Part shown: one piece after another, positions 14,631 through 54,500 of the stretch
Layout of the letters: every line of letters begins with the position of its first letter
Numbering within the stretch: position 1 is the first letter of the stretch
DNA from: Argopecten irradians
Lineage: Eukaryota; Mollusca; Bivalvia; Pectinida; Pectinidae
NCBI RefSeq assembly: GCF_041381155.1
Contig: NC_091144.1
Span: 15,137,544 to 15,201,543, forward strand
Length of the DNA: 64,000 nt
Direction: 5' to 3'
Notes under the pieces: generated by a model
The model's input: the letters and a program-made list of their open reading frames with translations, nothing else
The model's database searches: none
What the model was told of the DNA's origin: nothing
Position numbers and translations under genes: made by a program

Positions 14631-15529
14631 TTGAAAATCATACTATTTTGCAAAGTAGAAGACAACCTAAAAATTTAAAATAAATGTTAACAAATTCCAG
14701 GTTCAATAACTCTATTGCTGACCCCGTGGTGCGAAATGTAAGACACCTAGATGCGGTACATGTCCAATTATTATTGAATGTAGTACATATGTGTTTAAAA
14801 ACGGCTTGCATTTTCTTGTAAAAGCAAACATTAATTGCAAATCGAAGTTTGTGATAAATGCTATAATTTGTTCTCGTTGTGGTGAGTTTTACATCGGCCA
14901 AACTAGTAATGAACTTAGAGCATGTATGACTGTTCATAGGCAACAAACAAGAACGGTTCTCTATGTAATTTCAATGTCAGTAAATCCCCTATAACTCGAA
15001 CAGCGTGGGACTAGGTCAATTATTCGAGGAATATGGGGTATTCGACTCATCCGAGGTTGGTCACGATCGACAGTCAAAATGTCCGGTCTCTAACTATTAC
15101 AAACAATGCACGGCAATAAAATTTTACTCTATCTTTCAGCATTTTGGATTTCTTTATTCAAGTGTTTTTTGATAGCAATATCAAGTTGAAAAAAATATAT
15201 ATAACATAAATTTAGCGTTTGAAAATGCTTACGAGAAAGCCCTAAATCAAATGTCATTCACAGCAGAGTAAGCAATCGTCATCTAGGCCAATGTTCAATA
15301 CATATTGGTCAACAAGGTGTACATTTTCTATTATTTAATTATTACAAATCATTTTAAACATTTACCAAATACATACTCACAATAAAGTTATTAACCAGCA
15401 TAAGTACGTCTATTTTGTAAAAGCGTGAGTAAAGTTACAGATGGCGGACGTCAACAATATATTCCGCCTCTTTTGTCATTTCACAATGCGTTATTTCTGT
15501 GGCGGGATTGGACTGGGTCGATCACCGGT

Positions 15530-15602
15530 GACCAGGTAGCTCAGTCGGTAGAGCACTCGGCTAGTATTCGGAGGGTCCCGGGTTTGAATCCCGGTCTGGC
15601 CG
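15530..15602 (+). tRNA. tRNA-like sequence in left LTR
   Basis: A box TAGCTCAGTCGG (15537-15548) and B box GGTTTGAATCC (15581-15591). The D arm and T arm are well paired, and the acceptor stem pairs at six of seven positions including one G-T. If the loop is read as CTAGTAT the anticodon would be AGT (Thr), but the anticodon stem is poor, so I regard this as a tRNA-derived Pol III promoter in a repeat rather than a working tRNA gene. Confidence 0.6.
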
Positions 15603-15752
15603 CTACATTTTTTCCTCTCCTGTTACAAAATTGGCGCCCAACTAAATAACCCACGGTGGCGGTGTTTGGAAGGGTCTCGTATGTCTTCGAGGGCAAAGAC
15701 TTCGAGAAAGGAGGGAGGAGTGTAGCGGGATTGGACGGGGTCGATCACCTGT

Positions 15753-15831
15753 GACCAGGTAGCTCAGTCGGTAGAGCACTCGCGATCGGCTAGCATTCGA
15801 AGGGTCCCGGGTTCGAATCCCGGTCTGGCCG
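15753..15831 (+). tRNA. tRNA-like sequence in right LTR
   Basis: A box TAGCTCAGTCGG (15760-15771) and consensus B box GGTTCGAATCC (15810-15820). It has six extra bases in the anticodon-arm region compared with the left copy. Same interpretation: a tRNA-derived Pol III promoter within the LTR. Confidence 0.6.
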
Positions 15832-16075
15832 CTACATTTTCTCCTCTCCTGTTACATTTCTATTAACACGGATCAACAACTTCCGTTTTTTCGTATTTAC
15901 CGCGAAGATTATTACGAGAGAAACATCAATAATTTAATGCCTGTTCTTAAACGTTCAAATAAAGTTTGCATCAAACAACGACTTGCGATCGTGTAGGTAG
16001 GTAATAATGACACCGTTAATTCCTTAATTACCTAAAAGCTTGACACGCCACGCATAAGATCGTGAGCAATTATCC

Positions 16076-18053
16076 ATGTCGGTTGGTGCAGTCAGGTGTG
16101 ACACAGGTAAAAAAATATCTCATGAGCCGAACACCTGTAAGAACAATGTAAATAACTATAGAGGTATTACATTGATTAGTCATGTAGCAAAGTTATTTAC
16201 CAGTCTTTTGAACAAAAGGCTGTTAAAATGGAGCGAATCTGTATCTGCTGTTACAGATGCGCAATTTGGTTTTAAACCCGGTTTCGGTACTCGTGATGCT
16301 ATATTTGCATTATGTAGTCTAATTACTAATACTTTACAACAAAATAAAAAGCTTTATTGTGTTTTTGTCGATTACAGTAAAGCATTTGATAGCATTGTAC
16401 ATAATAAGCTTTGGCTCAAACTATGGCGATGTGGAATTAGGGGTAGATTGTTGAAAGTGATTATATCAATTTATGATAATGTAAAATTATGTACAAAATT
16501 AAGTGGAAAATCATCTGCAATGTTCGATTTACATGTCGGACTCTTACAAGGGGAATCTTTGTCTCCGATACTTTATTCTCTTTTTGTTAATGATATAGAA
16601 AGTGAATTGATAAACTCCAATTGTCAAAGCTATCAACTGCAACTTTTACATTTGTTCATACTTATGTATGCTGACGATACAGTTTTGTTTACTGAAGATG
16701 CTACTGACCTGCAAAACATGTTAGATTGTCTGCAAAATTATGCAAATAAATGGAGTTTATCTGTTAATATAGATAAAACCAAAATAGTTGTTTTTAGAAA
16801 AAGTAAACGTCTACAGGCTAATGAGTACTGGACCTTTCAAGGAAGGGCTATAGATATTGTTGATAATTTTTGTTATTTGGGGCTAGTTTTCAATTATAAT
16901 GGGAGATTTACTCTAGCGCTTAATACTTTAGCATCACAAGGAAGAAAGTCATACTATCTCCTTAATAGTAGAATGAAAAAATACATGCTTAATGTTGAAA
17001 CAAAATTATCCTTATTTGATACTTATGTTTCATGTGTGCTTAATTACTGTTGCGAGGTATGGGGCTCGCACCCAGCACCTAAGATTGAATCTGTACATCT
17101 TTTATTCCTGAAGAGTTTATTGAATGTGAAAAAAACAGTCAATAGTTCTATGGTGTATTTTGAGACTGGTAGGTTTACTTTACATATACAGCGTAAAATA
17201 ATGGTGATGAAATATTGGTTAAAGCTATTAAGAACAGATAACTGTATTTTAAAGTCATGCTATAATGCTCTATTTGAGCTCATTATAAAAAAGCCTAATT
17301 ATAAATTAAATTGGTTGTATGATGTAAAAAATGATTTAGGTAGATGTGGTTTCAACAATATTTGGATTGCTCAGAATGTAGATAATGAAAAACACTTTTT
17401 GGAATTGTATTCACAGCGCTTGCATGATATATTTATTCAGGAACTGCGTTGCGCATTTGACGTGTCTCCTAAATGTGAAATTTATAAACATCTTGTTGAT
17501 AACTTTGAAATTCAATTTTATTTAAAGAAGCCTTTGAATTCTAAAACTAAACAAATATTGAGTAAATATCGCATGCAAGCCCACTCTCTGCAAATTGAAG
17601 CTGGCCGTTATAACGCCGTTCCCAGAGGCGATAGACTTTGTACTGTTTGTGACAAAAATGATGTAGAAGATGAAATGCATTTTGTATTACTATGTCCTGC
17701 TTATTCTGAGTTACGTAAAAAGTTTATAAAAACTTATTACCACAAACACCCAAGTGTATATAAATTAATTATGTTATTTTCATCTAAAAATGTAAAGAGC
17801 TTAAATCTGTTGGGGAAATATTTGATCCAGGCAACAGAAAAAAGGAAAATTATCATTAATCAGCAGTAGTATATACATGTATATCATACTCATGTATTAA
17901 TCAATTTGTTTAATTTGGTATGAAGTATATCGGAATTATCCTCCGCCATCTTGAAACATAACAATGATCATTGTATTATGTATTTATGTATTGGTTAAAC
18001 CTATATGCTGTATTGCATTTGGTAAATAAAAAACTTGAAACTTGAAACTTGAA
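16076..18053 (+). mobile_element. 5'-truncated LINE with 597-codon open RT ORF
   Basis: Non-LTR retrotransposon. The ORF (16076-17869) is uninterrupted. It starts within the reverse transcriptase fingers (NNYRGITLIS, 26-35) and has FVDYSKAFDS (97-106), LLQGESLSP (156-164), the catalytic YADD (198-201), a thumb and connector region, and a C-terminal zinc motif with C522, C525, H535, C540. The endonuclease and ORF1 are missing, so it was truncated at insertion; the ATG is probably not the native start. The 3' end has an AATAAA and a simple tail of three CTTGAAA units (18031-18053). The clade is unresolved (RTE/jockey/I-type are candidates). An unbroken ORF implies recent insertion. Confidence 0.88.
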
Positions 18054-48500: not shown

Positions 48501-51500
48501 TACATCTATTAACTGTACCAGACCTGTATCTATCAATTGAAAATTGAGAATACAACAAAAGGTGGGAGTGGGCAAAAAATAATTAGCCTTTAGCTTGGCT
48601 GTTGAAGCACATGTCAATTGAAAACGAGGCGCGGTAAAACAATGCGGAAGTACATCAATTTTTACAAGCACTAAAAATACAGAATGCGGGAAACTAGGGA
48701 AACGACAATACTAAAATTATATTTACATGTAAATAACACTTTACTGATAGTCTAATAAACGGAAGCAACAACATTATAACAATAATGGCTTTAATGGATA
48801 CCACTTCCAGAGTACATCTATTAACTGTACCAGACCTGTATCTATCAATTGAAAATAGACAATACAACAAAAATGAGTGTTGCAAATGTCATGAGATATA
48901 TAGGTCCAAACCCAAGTTGTTGAAAAGGAAGGGAAAAAGGGGGTTATGATACAGGTTAACGAGGAAGAGATAAACAAAAGAGGTTCATAGCATTGTTACG
49001 TTTGCTCCTATTAGTTTCAATATAGCGTTTATAGCAATCACTAGACCATAAACCTAGAAGTTGGATATCGTCGTCTGCGACACCACACTAACTACCCTAA
49101 GTAGCAGCCCCCCCCCCCCCCCCCCCCCCCCCGCGACTCGGAGAGTGACCCCCATAGGAAGCGGCGTAGTACCCTAGTTGAGAGAGAATAAAGCGGAAGG
49201 CCTTAAGGAAACCAGAGTAGGATATGCACTTCCCAGAGGATAAGAGGAACAGAGGTTGGGTCAAATCTGGTCGTACTAAAAGCTGCTGAAGTGGGGCACA
49301 GGGGCAAAGGGGGTGACCTAGCTGTAAACGGGGAAGAACAATTTCAATAGGAACAGCTCTAAATTGCATGGTCTGTACAACTTTTAAAGACAATAACATA
49401 CCCCATAGGTGAGGCAACAAATCCAGACACTGAATATGACGGGATGGGTCAAATACACCTTTAACTAAGAAATTATTAGGTCTCAAAAAAAACCCCAAAG
49501 AAACCAACAAGGCAGGCTGACCAAAAAACACAGTTGTCTTTACAAGTAAAATCTAAAATATATCGTGAATCTCTAACAACAAACGGGGAGTTACTGGGGA
49601 CTTACAGGATTGTGCTGTGCCAATTTCTCTCTTAACACCCGTTAAGACATGTTTTACATGCCAGGTTGTAGTATAGGACCAGGTAGATTTTCAGATGTGT
49701 GGAAGACTGATATAATATTTAAGATTTTAAGTAAGTAAGATTTTATACTGCTAATTTTTTTCACATCAACCAAATAGGCGACATACATTTCTACAGTCTC
49801 TATATCTGCCGGAACACTTGCTAACTTATGGGCCGTACAAAAACTCAAAAAAGTCTGTAAATGAGTTTTATAAGTCTCTGATATGGAACTAGCCCACCCC
49901 TTCTTTTTCAGTCTTTTCACACCGTGTTTGAGTCTCTCTGTCTGGGGATCCGCGTAATCCCCACCTATAACATAGAAAAGAAGGGGAAACATGCTTTAAC
50001 AGCTCATCGGCAGTAAAGTCAATAAGGTTATAACTAGTCACAACACTATACAAGCGAGAAAGCTGACCTTGCTCATGAAGGCGAGAAGCACTATCTGCGA
50101 TAGTATTAAATCGTCCATTTATGAATTTTGCTTTGATTTTGAAATTATAATATGCAGATATCCAAAATAACAATCTTAAACAAAACATAAGTACACTATT
50201 CTTAGAGGACCCTTTGTTAATAATGCTCATGGTGGTCATATTGTCCGTTGACACAATCACAGTTTTATTACACCACCAAGGGGCCCAACGTAAAGCTGAT
50301 AATACGACAGCCATTGTTTCTTTAATATTAATATGTTCGGAGGACATCACTAGCAGGTCTAATTCCCAATTGACATAAAAGTAATCACCATTATCACACG
50401 CGTCTGTCTGTAAGCCTGTTAGAGGTGTTAACTCTATAAAGCGGACACAGCCATTAAAAGTTGACATAAACGTTATCCACCAGTTTAAGTCGGAGAAAAA
50501 ATCATCATTAAGTTTAACTTTTGCATTAGAACATTTATATTCACTTGGGATCAAATTAAGCACACGTCTGAGAAAGGGGCGGCCTCCCTTTATCACTGAA
50601 CATGCCCAACTGAGCTTTCCACATAAAGATTCTAGTTGTTTGACACTTGCACGCTTTTTTCCAACAAACGTATATAGTAAGTTTTGAAATTCGGTCATTT
50701 TTCCTGCAGTAAACTCAATGTTAGTTCCGTCGTGTTGATTAAGACTCCAAGGAAGATAAGCTGCTGACTAGGACCCTCGACTTTGTTCCACGATATATTG
50801 AAGCCCAATTTTCTCAGAGTTGAGATGAGTAATCGAAGACCTCTACTGCATTGTTCAAAAGTGTTTTCGATAATTAGAAAATCGTCTAAATATGCGATAA
50901 CTGTCACATTAAAATGAACTTTCATGATATGACACACAGACAAACTCAGCTTTTGAAAGATTTTAGGGCTTTTGGCATGCCCAAAAGGTAATTTTGTGTC
51001 ATACATATATGATGGCGATGTTTCTCCCTTAAACGTCCACTTTAAGCCTGTGAGTGCATAATCTGAAGGATGAATTTTTACTGAGCAGTAGGCACTTTTT
51101 AAATCCACTTTTGCTAAGAAATCACTTGGTTTAATGATAGAAATGGCACTTTTTAAATCCATATAAGAACAATCTGTATCCGAGGTTAAAGAATTTAAGC
51201 ATGCATGTATAGACCGACTAGCATCATGAATTAAGCGAACATCCCCGTTAGTTTTAGGGACAGCTCCAAGCGAACTAATTATTGTCGGTTTTGTATCTGT
51301 TATTACGTAATTTTTAGCGATAACTCTGTGAGTATCTGATCTTCAACTTTTTTATTATATAAAGCAGCTGAGGTATAGTTGTCTCTTGCGACTTGTTGGT
51401 ATGGACCAAATTTTGAAGTAAGCTTAAATCCATCACGTATACCAACTAAAAGTTCCTCCCTATCCCCACAGTCGTTAGGAGCAGTTCTTCTCACGCCCCA

Positions 51501-54500
51501 TGTTTTAAACAGTTTGTACAGTCTACTGTTGAGCTGGCCCGTTTTTTGGGGTCCCTATGACAGTGGGGTAAGATTTGGAAGTGTCTTGGGAGTGGTTAAC
51601 GGCCGAATGAACACTTGAAAGGCAAATGGCACAATTATGTGCCATCCTACATGCCGGTCGCGTACACATGTTACTGTTGAGGCTACGACAGATTTCTTTC
51701 CCGTTAGGCAGGAAGGGGTCCTTCATACGTCGATCCGGTGCACTGTTATGATATTGGGTTTGAATGCCAGCCTCTTGAAATGCCCTAGACGTGACATTAG
51801 AGGATTTATGAACTAGGTTGAATTCTTGTAGATCTTGTCTGTATGTCCCCCACTGTGGCTTGTTGTTCTCGATATTCCTTATCATAAAGGAGCACGGAAA
51901 ACCAAACATACTTGGACGCGAGCCGGAAAATGTCAGCTGTATACTTTAAGTATGGCGCAGAATTGGGGAGATTGCCTGATTTTGTTAGGGCAGTCATGAT
52001 TTGGATGTTCGCGAACCCCCATTGTTCTAGTGTCACTTTTTCCAAAGTACGAGTTTTACCTATTCTCACCTCCATATTTTTACCTAGATTCACAGTATCA
52101 TATTGGGGAATAGGGTCCTGAGAGATATGGTCTACGATTTTTAAACATTTTCGCTGTTCATTGTTATTGTTCAAATTGTTCAATATCAACTCACCGACAC
52201 TGGCAACGGCTCCACTCTCTTGACCTTGACCGTGATCCCTAGAATTGTCTGGTGTCACGTAATCTTTTGCGAGTTCGGTTCGTATTTTTTCCTTTTCTTC
52301 ATTAATTTTTCTTCGTATCATAATTTTTTCTCTGTCAATTTTTATCCTTTTCAGTTCGCTTTGCAGTTGTTGTAGCTCTTCGTCGTCATGATCGTCCACG
52401 TGGTCGCCATCACTCCCCGGCATGGGTCCATGTTCTGGCATCGTCAAAGATTCATGGAAAACGTCTTCCGTATCACTTTCGCGGGACTCTTCTTCGTTTT
52501 GAAGGGCGTCGATAAACACTTTTAGTCTTGCTCCCGCTTTCGTTCGCTTGGGAAGAGCCCCGCCGTTACCTTCAGTCATATTTCAGCAAAAATCATCAGC
52601 AAAAAATAATCAGCTTTTAGCGTGGCTGTTGAAGCACATGTCAATTGAAAACGAGGCGCGGTAAAACATTGCGGAAGTACATCAAGTTTTACAAGCACTA
52701 AAATACAGAATGCGGGAAAATAGCGAAACGACAATACTAAAATTATATTTACATGTAAATAACACAATAAGTCAACAGACTTAATACTTATACTAATACT
52801 TGATAAATACCTATTTGTCATTTTACTGAAATTTCTATGTCGATAATGCTGTCTGAGAATTGACGTGATGTAGATAATGCTTTATTGAAAGTCCCATTCA
52901 AACCATTCTTGGTTGTATTGCATTCTTCAAATTCCCATCGCCGATCTGGTTTGGTCTGGTCTTCGTTGTTTTTTTTAGTTTGAATCTAAACATTATTTTG
53001 TTATGATTTAGACATAGCCTCTTCTGATATGATTATCCCAAGTAAATGTTCATAGACATTGATTTGCTTAAGTTGACTTTGATTCAAACGTAAGAATAAA
53101 TGACACCTTTGTTTGAAAATTGTAATTATTTGCACATCTGTGTTCATAAGTAGGAATTTAAATACCCCTTTAGTGATTTGATGAGTAATTCAATAAATAG
53201 TTTATATCTGTTCAATTTAAAAACTGTAGATTTGGTCATTGATAAGTTGGTAACAGAAATAACATTTACTTCATTCTATCTATTAATGTACATATTTGCC
53301 AATTCATATATACTCAAAAGTATGTACATATTTTTGCAAAGAGAAGATTTTAAAGAACATTTTGTATTGCTTAGATTTTGACATTCAATCGTACATTTTG
53401 GTCTTGGTAACTGGAGTTTTATTGATGTTTCAGTTGGTGTAGTGCATGGAATTAATGCACCGACAAAAATTAGCTCTTGGTTACCAATTGCTGCATATAC
53501 GAACCCGGAAGTGACGTATACCCATGGTCTGGGCGAAGTGCCAATAAAAGTTGATGTTCAGGTTCGGATAAGAGATACCACACGGAATAAGGATATTATC
53601 TTCAACGCCATCAACTCGGGTCATAGAGGAGAGGACGATGGATCAGAGTATGGGGGAGTGATATATGTCTATAATAGCAATGAAGTAAAAATGTTAGCCC
53701 CCGGCTCGTCAAATGGCGCTGGCACAGGAAAGCTTGTACACTTAGGTGATGTAATATTCATTAAATCATTAATGTCATTTTTCTAAATTCCATAGGGGTA
53801 TGAAAATATGTTTTAATTACCAATCCGCCACAAAAAATGGAAATATTTGTTTTCGTAACCCATGCTATGAAAATGTATCAAATAGTAATCATTCTTTATT
53901 ATATAACTCAATTTTGCTTGAAATAAGCATTTTCATTGGTTTAAAATTCAGCCCATTATTGAAAAAAAAATAGAAAATTTTTGTAACGTCGCTTCTGATT
54001 GGCAGATATAGCAGCGTTATGCTTTCATAGAAAATAAGTCCCATAATTAATTTTTAATTTTTAATAGAAAACCTTTCGTAAATTGAATTATAAGGATTAA
54101 TTCTTACTCAGATTTTATTATCTTATATTTACTTCAATAATCTTTTGATCCAATTCAGACAAAATAAAATATGTTTTAATGTACGATTCATTGATTTATC
54201 AAGGTATTTTAAAATGTCATTAAATCAACACCCATTCTCAGTGTCTCTATTGTGACGTCACGATATCATTTGTGCCATTTTCGGATCATATTTAGTCATA
54301 GCATGAAACCAATTACAACAAGAAATGATATATTCGTGAATTTTTAACTATTGTATTATTACGGCATATAAAAACGTTTCTTAATCAGATATATTAGATA
54401 AGAAAATTATCGACGTTAAAGGCGTTCAGACAGGAGTACCGCTTAATATCTACATTTATAATGTTTGTTTAATACGTCTTTAAATATTTGATAATTGCGT

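What the first reader, a model, noticed from the sequence alone, without database searches (positions are those of the whole stretch)
15498..15856. Miniature LTR element whose LTRs carry a full tRNA-like Pol III promoter
TG...CA direct repeats, a tRNA-Lys-type primer site, a polypurine tract and a likely 4-bp target duplication identify a TRIM-type element of only 359 bp. Each ~130-bp LTR contains a tRNA-like sequence with A and B boxes. In plants, Cassandra TRIMs carry 5S rRNA promoters in their LTRs; a tRNA equivalent in a mollusc would be a parallel solution letting Pol III transcribe a retrotransposon. I am not aware of a described case but could not search.
Basis: partly seen in the sequence, partly recalled or inferred. 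Interest (0 to 1): 0.82.

Follow-up and report, generated by a model that had tools for sequence, protein, structure and literature searches.

The report
Scallop mini-retrotransposon with tRNA promoter
This is a tiny non-coding jumping element whose two end repeats each contain a transfer-RNA-like sequence that may drive its transcription; it is real and common in this scallop genome, but the kind was already described in 2024 under the name Helenus.

Summary
Window 15498-15856 is a 359-bp miniature LTR retrotransposon: 130/136-nt LTRs, tRNA-Lys-type primer site, polypurine tract, 4-bp target duplication (TTTC), and a tRNA-like sequence in each LTR that passes Rfam and ARAGORN. It is dispersed: the LTR start occurs 528 times in the genome, reversed control 0. 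Of 30 full-length loci cut out, 19 of the 23 outside tandem arrays have an exact 4-bp duplication. Four of 30 LTRs sampled in contig order are solo, all with 4-bp duplications. A tRNA-SINE dimer is excluded.

The kind is not new: Kojima 2024 (PMC10886601) named it Helenus and lists the bay scallop Argopecten irradians as a host. A myosin exon of this genome is 106/106 identical to bay-scallop myosin.

Not found in the parts of that paper I saw: a second tRNA-bearing family here, whose LTRs match only over the tRNA-like part but whose internal domain is related, both with a perfect hairpin of different letters before the polypurine tract; and a three-LTR mosaic inside one 4-bp duplication. Pol III transcription was not tested.

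The parts
15494..15497 (.). target-site duplication, left copy (TTTC)
   Evidence: row L001
15498..15627 (+). 5' LTR, 130 nt, TGTGGC...GTTACA
15530..15603 (+). tRNA-like sequence in 5' LTR (ARAGORN Thr-AGT; Rfam tRNA 47.5 bits)
15537..15548 (+). box A-like TAGCTCAGTCGG
   Evidence: read; box motifs as given in PMC10886601
15581..15591 (+). box B-like GGTTTGAATCC (one change from GGTTCGAATCC of the 3' LTR)
   Evidence: read
15608..15613 (+). T6 run directly after the tRNA-like part, possible Pol III terminator
   Evidence: role inferred
15632..15642 (+). primer-binding site TGGCGCCCAAC, 11 nt, tRNA-Lys(CTT) type (the tRNA match is recalled, not computed)
   Evidence: present in 30 of 30 full-length loci, which were picked as best matches
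15683..15700 (+). internal hairpin GTCTTCG-AGGG-CAAAGAC, 6 of 7 pairs in the window copy
15707..15720 (+). polypurine tract AAAGGAGGGAGGAG
   Evidence: exact and followed by TGT in 29 of 30 loci
15721..15856 (+). 3' LTR, 136 nt, 6 nt longer than the 5' LTR
15753..15832 (+). tRNA-like sequence in 3' LTR (ARAGORN Asp-ATC; Rfam tRNA 42.5 bits)
15760..15771 (+). box A-like TAGCTCAGTCGG
   Evidence: read
15810..15820 (+). box B-like GGTTCGAATCC
   Evidence: read
15837..15840 (+). T4 run directly after the tRNA-like part
15857..15860 (.). target-site duplication, right copy (TTTC)
   Evidence: row L001

Best explanation
A Helenus-type TRIM (non-autonomous miniature LTR retrotransposon with a tRNA-derived sequence in its LTRs) in a scallop, most likely the bay scallop Argopecten irradians. 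It encodes nothing recognisable. Shown by anatomy: it was made by LTR-type reverse transcription (tRNA-Lys-type primer site, polypurine tract, two LTRs alike in the young copies) and inserted with 4-bp duplications; solo LTRs and tandem arrays occur. Inferred: RNA polymerase III starts just upstream of the tRNA-like part of the 5' LTR through its A and B boxes, reads through the first T run and the 93-nt internal domain, and ends at or near the T run of the 3' LTR, so that the tRNA-like stretch is the repeated R region and the last ~17-20 nt of the LTR are U5. The RNA is then copied in trans by the proteins of an autonomous element, probably Gypsy-type as proposed in PMC10886601, primed by tRNA-Lys.
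For: tRNA-like hits in both LTRs. 528 exact LTR starts, control 0. Exact 4-bp duplications in 19 of 23 loci outside arrays, against 13 of 506 in mismatched pairs. TGT...TTACA ends in 29 of 30 loci, primer site in 30 of 30, exact polypurine tract plus LTR start in 29 of 30. LTR pairs differ by 0-3 of 130 in 26 of 26 rows left after dropping L001 (window copy), L002 (mosaic), L007 (5' end incomplete) and L025 (not parsed) of 30; 6 of the 26 are neighbouring LTRs inside arrays. Sample of 30 LTR starts in contig order: 13 3' LTRs, 12 5' LTRs, 1 middle LTR of an array, 4 solo LTRs, the 4 with matching 4-bp flanks (L073 and L083 reassigned by eye from the script's 'solo'). Longest stop-free stretch in any frame 69 codons. 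Host: myosin exon 106/106 identical to the 1QVI chain, which a passage of PMC6650474 names bay scallop. Matching published kind: PMC10886601.
Against: No RNA data, so Pol III use is inference. A T run of four or more stands right behind the tRNA-like part in the 5' LTR of 29 of 30 loci, which should stop Pol III early; full-length copies need read-through. The second family in this genome has no T4 anywhere in the three LTRs checked, so the terminator/R-U5 reading does not generalise. In the 30-LTR sample the boxes are not clearly spared: non-CpG change against one copy is box A 11/290, box B 14/270, whole tRNA-like part 103/1754, T run plus U5 32/745; this says little either way, as most copies are probably dead. 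No autonomous partner was identified. 4 of 23 loci outside arrays lack an exact 4-bp duplication.
Confidence: 0.88

Rival explanations
1. A dimeric tRNA-derived SINE or a pair of tandem tRNA genes, not an LTR element.
For: Two tRNA-like units 223 nt apart, each called by ARAGORN and Rfam. Longer tandem arrays exist (six LTRs in L010). Locus L007 has an incomplete 5' end and an 18-bp flanking repeat.
Against: Constant ends (29 of 30 loci), primer site (30 of 30) and polypurine tract (29 of 30), 4-bp duplications in 19 of 23, and 4 solo LTRs with 4-bp duplications among 30 sampled LTRs.
Confidence: 0.02
2. A TRIM transcribed by RNA polymerase II from an ordinary LTR promoter; the tRNA-like part is a passenger from an old SINE insertion, or serves the RNA (packaging, localisation), not transcription.
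For: The T run in the 5' LTR should block Pol III. Boxes are not measurably protected among copies. The whole LTR folds as a rod, not a cloverleaf (z about -1.6; the tRNA-like part alone was not folded).
Against: Box A and box B are intact in two families of one genome whose LTRs align only over the tRNA-like part. Only 32 nt lie upstream of the tRNA-like part in the window family, little room for a Pol II promoter (the second family has more). The same association recurs across phyla in PMC10886601.
Confidence: 0.12
3. The LTR still makes a working tRNA-Thr, so that copies enlarge the host's tRNA set.
For: Of 15 loci scanned, ARAGORN reads Thr-AGT in both LTRs of 7 and in one LTR of 3. PMC10886601 says seven bivalve families can encode tRNA-Thr (passage).
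Against: 5 of the 15 loci have no Thr call, only '???' with a four-base anticodon, and the window's own 3' LTR reads Asp-ATC. PMC10886601 judges Helenus unlikely to encode functional tRNA.
Confidence: 0.03

Closest known systems
Helenus (Kojima 2024, PMC10886601), bivalve families
   Same: Non-coding TRIM, tRNA-like sequence with A/B boxes in each LTR, tRNA-Lys 3'-end primer site used by some bivalve families, polypurine tract, 4-bp duplications in animals, several families per genome. Tandem arrays are reported for the zebrafish family. Argopecten irradians is in the host table.
   Different: I could not see the supplementary consensus sequences, so whether this exact family, or the second one, is listed is not known. 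The window copy has unequal LTRs.
Cassandra (5S rRNA TRIM of plants; seen in PMC7215508 abstract and passages, and as told in PMC10886601)
   Same: TRIM with a Pol III promoter inside the LTRs, tandem arrays of LTR and internal domain, multi-unit transcripts from arrays reported.
   Different: 5S rRNA instead of tRNA; plants; the only validated case according to PMC10886601.
biv-TRIM (Satovic 2019, PMC6934838, passages seen)
   Same: Bivalve TRIM with solo repeats, tandem forms, and inverted repeats in the inner domain.
   Different: No unambiguous primer site there; no tRNA-like part in its terminal repeats is mentioned in the passages I saw.

Membership tests
Helenus | short LTR element without coding capacity (311-1263 bp in PMC10886601) | tested here: met
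   359 nt; longest stop-free run 69 codons
Helenus | tRNA-derived sequence inside each LTR with box A and box B | tested here: met
   Rfam 47.5 and 42.5 bits, ARAGORN both; motifs read
Helenus | primer-binding site after the 5' LTR and polypurine tract before the 3' LTR | tested here: met
   30 of 30 and 29 of 30 loci
Helenus | 4-bp target duplications (animal Helenus) | tested here: met
   19 of 23 loci outside arrays exact
Helenus | mobilised by Gypsy-type autonomous elements | tested here: inconclusive
   51 exact sites for the 17-base Lys primer pattern TGGCGCCCAACGTGGGG, control 0. 8 of the 51 read over 301-351 bases: five share one LTR end (whose last letters GTTACA it has in common with this family), L094 and L099 have one other end each, L096 is the second TRIM family. 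No partner proved; coding sequence beside them was not examined.
Helenus | Pol III transcription | not testable with these tools
   no RNA data; stated as unvalidated in PMC10886601
tRNA-derived SINE (dimer) | variable, longer target duplications and LINE-type 3' tail (recalled) | tested here: not met
   4-bp duplications in 19 of 23; only L007 shows an 18-bp flanking repeat

The most novel reading that the evidence does not exclude
Two Helenus families of one genome, whose LTRs are alike only over the tRNA-like part, share an internal domain in which letters upstream of the polypurine tract have changed while a perfect hairpin is kept (7 bp GTCTTCG/CGAAGAC in one, 9 bp TTGAGATTT/AAATCTCAA in the other). 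That hairpin would be the recognition signal by which an autonomous element's Gag or reverse transcriptase accepts Pol III-made RNA, and whole multi-LTR chains (such as L002) can be copied and inserted as one unit.
Probability: 0.25. Interest if true: 0.5.

Novelty: already known. Interest (0 to 1): 0.22.

Why it matters
Such elements plant hundreds of tRNA-like sequences in a genome and can distort automatic tRNA gene counts (PMC10886601 shows this for rust fungi). The related internal domain and hairpin of two families with different LTRs offer a small, testable candidate for what ties a Pol III-type TRIM RNA to its helper element, which PMC10886601 says is not known.

Tried and rejected
Tried without result: COX1 in the genome to name the host (none). 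Two myosin exons whose best matches were unconventional myosins. L089 as an autonomous partner: it looked like a foreign LTR with this family's U5 and primer site, but is a copy of this family with most of its 5' LTR missing, in a repeat-rich flank. The pattern for host tRNA-Lys genes was too loose to read (6067 hits against 1865 in the control). Eight of 51 Lys primer sites were read for a partner; none was convincing. Whole-LTR RNA folding gave no cloverleaf and z about -1.6.

Rejected: SINE dimer, tRNA gene cluster, chance repeat (see rivals). Also rejected: reading the LTR divergence of the window copy (7 mismatches plus 6 nt) as simple age. Its 3' LTR is closer to the middle LTR of L002 (133 of 136) than to its own 5' LTR, so exchange between copies is as likely.

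Full report
What is there. The repeats at 15498-15627 and 15721-15856 are direct repeats of 130 and 136 nt beginning TGT and ending ACA, enclosing 93 nt that start with AAAT and the tRNA-Lys-type primer site TGGCGCCCAAC and end with the polypurine tract AAAGGAGGGAGGAG; TTTC stands on both sides. Each repeat holds a tRNA-like sequence that passes Rfam's gathering score and ARAGORN; these are the only two tRNA hits of either program in the window. Right after the tRNA-like part stands a T run (six T in the 5' LTR, four in the 3' LTR).

It is a dispersed family. The genome that holds the window has 845.8 Mb in 1508 contigs. The 359-bp unit has at least 46 matches (some are overlapping units of arrays). 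The first 26 bases of the LTR occur 528 times exactly (286 + 242), the reversed control 0 times. A 20-base stretch of the internal domain occurs 399 times (213 + 186; control 0), which counts the window family and a second family together.

Insertion anatomy. Of the 30 best full-length loci cut out (30 of 46 matches, biased to those most like the window copy), seven lie in three tandem arrays. Of the other 23, 19 have an exact 4-bp duplication; flanks taken from different copies agree in 13 of 506 pairs. The four without are L004 (3 of 4 bases), L013 (3 of 4), L006 (2 of 4) and L007. L007 lacks its first two bases, if the TA before GCGGG is counted to the element, and has an 18-bp direct repeat on both sides, as an insertion not made by the usual integrase step could have. 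The two LTRs of a copy differ by 0 (13 rows), 1 (11 rows), 2 (1) or 3 (1) of 130 in the 26 rows left after dropping the window copy, mosaic L002, L007 and unparsed L025; 6 of these 26 are neighbours within arrays. The ends are TGT(A/G)GC...TTACA in 29 of 30, the primer site is present in 30 of 30, and the exact polypurine tract before TGT in 29 of 30.

Unselected sample. The 30 loci returned are the first 30 of 528 LTR starts, along contig C1. My script classed 12 as 3' LTR, 11 as 5' LTR, one as both (array) and 6 as solo. On inspection L073 is a 3' LTR (polypurine tract two bases off) and L083 a 5' LTR (changed primer site), leaving 13, 12, 1 and 4. The four solo LTRs (L059, L061, L077, L086) have matching 4-bp flanks, L059's being AAAA in an A run. 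A T run of four or more follows CTACA in 22 of 30; two have TTT and six did not match the search expression, one of them (L067) cut short before that place.

Host. A muscle-myosin exon (L057, C5) is 106 of 106 identical to the chain group that includes 1QVI and 1B7T, ahead of 2OS8. A passage of PMC6650474 names 1QVI as bay scallop Argopecten irradians and 2OS8 as Placopecten. The published draft of A. i. irradians is 835.7 Mb (passages of PMC7090048). The species is therefore likely, not proved; one exon was compared and the two scallops are close.

Known kind. PMC10886601 (Kojima 2024; [quoted passage not shown] irradians in Table 1; bivalve families use tRNA-Lys among others, and seven bivalve families can encode tRNA-Thr. 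A search for papers from 2023 on naming Helenus with TRIM and retrotransposon returned only that one. In the listings of three other searches I recognised no further tRNA-bearing TRIM by title or start of abstract; I did not open most of those papers. The element meets every Helenus feature that I could test and that gave an answer; the helper element stayed open.

How it probably works. Reverse transcription and integration are read from the anatomy. Transcription is inferred: box A TAGCTCAGTCGG and box B GGTT(C/T)GAATCC are present in the LTRs, and 32 nt precede the tRNA-like part. If Pol III starts a few bases upstream of the tRNA-like part (recalled for tRNA genes) and ends in the T run, the LTR divides into U3 (~20-30 nt), R (the tRNA-like stretch) and U5 (~17-20 nt). 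The weak point is that the same T run in the 5' LTR must be read through. In the second family none of the three LTRs checked holds a T4, so this division is not general.

A second family. Reading Lys primer sites led to L096 and then to a second tRNA-bearing TRIM family (41 matches, a lower bound) with LTRs of 181-182 nt, read as tRNA-Glu by ARAGORN in L103-L105. Against the first family its LTR aligns at 71% over positions 42-107 (the tRNA-like part), with one further weak match of no significance (E 0.35). Its internal domain is related: 66 matched positions, 10 mismatches and 19 gap positions, the first 20 bases identical. Both families have a perfect Watson-Crick hairpin just before the polypurine tract with different letters: 7 bp in the first (printed as best stem in 14 of 18 distinct internal sequences; the window's own copy has 6 of 7 pairs, and one shortened sequence has lost it), 9 bp in the second (2 of 2). 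In 20,000 dinucleotide shuffles a stem as long arose 344 times for the first (1.7%, weak) and 13 times for the second. With two families this is a lead, not a covariation proof. The main text of PMC10886601 holds no 'hairpin', 'inverted repeat' or 'packaging'; inverted repeats in inner domains are reported for another bivalve TRIM (PMC6934838, passages). The second family may well be in that paper's supplement, which I could not open.

Arrays. L010 has six LTRs and five internal domains (flanks CATG/CACG); L009/L026 three LTRs (flanks share GTAACATTG, 9 bp, not a 4-bp duplication); L080 three; L002 three; L105 (second family) three parsed, without matching flanks. In L002 the outer LTRs have no mismatch (one 1-nt gap) while the middle LTR differs by 5 mismatches and a 6-7 nt gap, and the first internal domain and middle LTR are of the window type. 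The whole is flanked by CAGT on both sides. Copying a three-LTR RNA would give this, since outer LTRs are remade from one template; ectopic gene conversion into a single element would too. The other arrays do not show this pattern: in L010 the last LTR differs from the first by 4, in L080 the outer LTRs differ by 7 mismatches, in L009 by 2.

Verdict. Interest is low for the finding itself; the related internal domain and hairpin are the part worth a follow-up.

Noticed in passing
L105 (C3:5993637-5996754, minus strand), L104, L103: Second tRNA-bearing TRIM family in the same genome: LTR 181-182 nt, tRNA-Glu-like, primer site TTAGCGCCCAACTAAATAACC in L105, period 268 in tandem.
   Followed up: partly
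L096 (C6:9657650-9657950): Chimera: LTR and primer site of the second family joined head to head to an inverted primer site and LTR of the window family, with a nearly palindromic junction TGGCGCCCAACGTGGGGCGCCA.
   Followed up: partly
L007, flanks of the element at 1501-1849: Copy with an incomplete 5' end and an 18-bp direct repeat TATTTGACATCAAAACAA on both sides instead of a 4-bp duplication.
   Followed up: partly
L002, 1501-2083: Three-LTR mosaic with outer LTRs free of mismatches, a divergent window-type middle LTR and one exact 4-bp duplication CAGT around the whole.
   Followed up: partly
window 16076-17869 (+): 597-aa ORF with a reverse transcriptase domain (RVT_1, 1.4e-32), next to the TRIM but of another element, probably LINE-type (my guess, not tested).
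   Followed up: no
window 50695-51162 (-): Second reverse-transcriptase fragment (RVT_1, 2.2e-17) among several minus-strand ORFs at 49097-52579.
   Followed up: no
C9:182076-210246 and C18:202226-213162: Lys primer-site pattern repeated at about 5.5-5.8 kb steps (one step double), suggesting clustered autonomous LTR elements of about that length.
   Followed up: no
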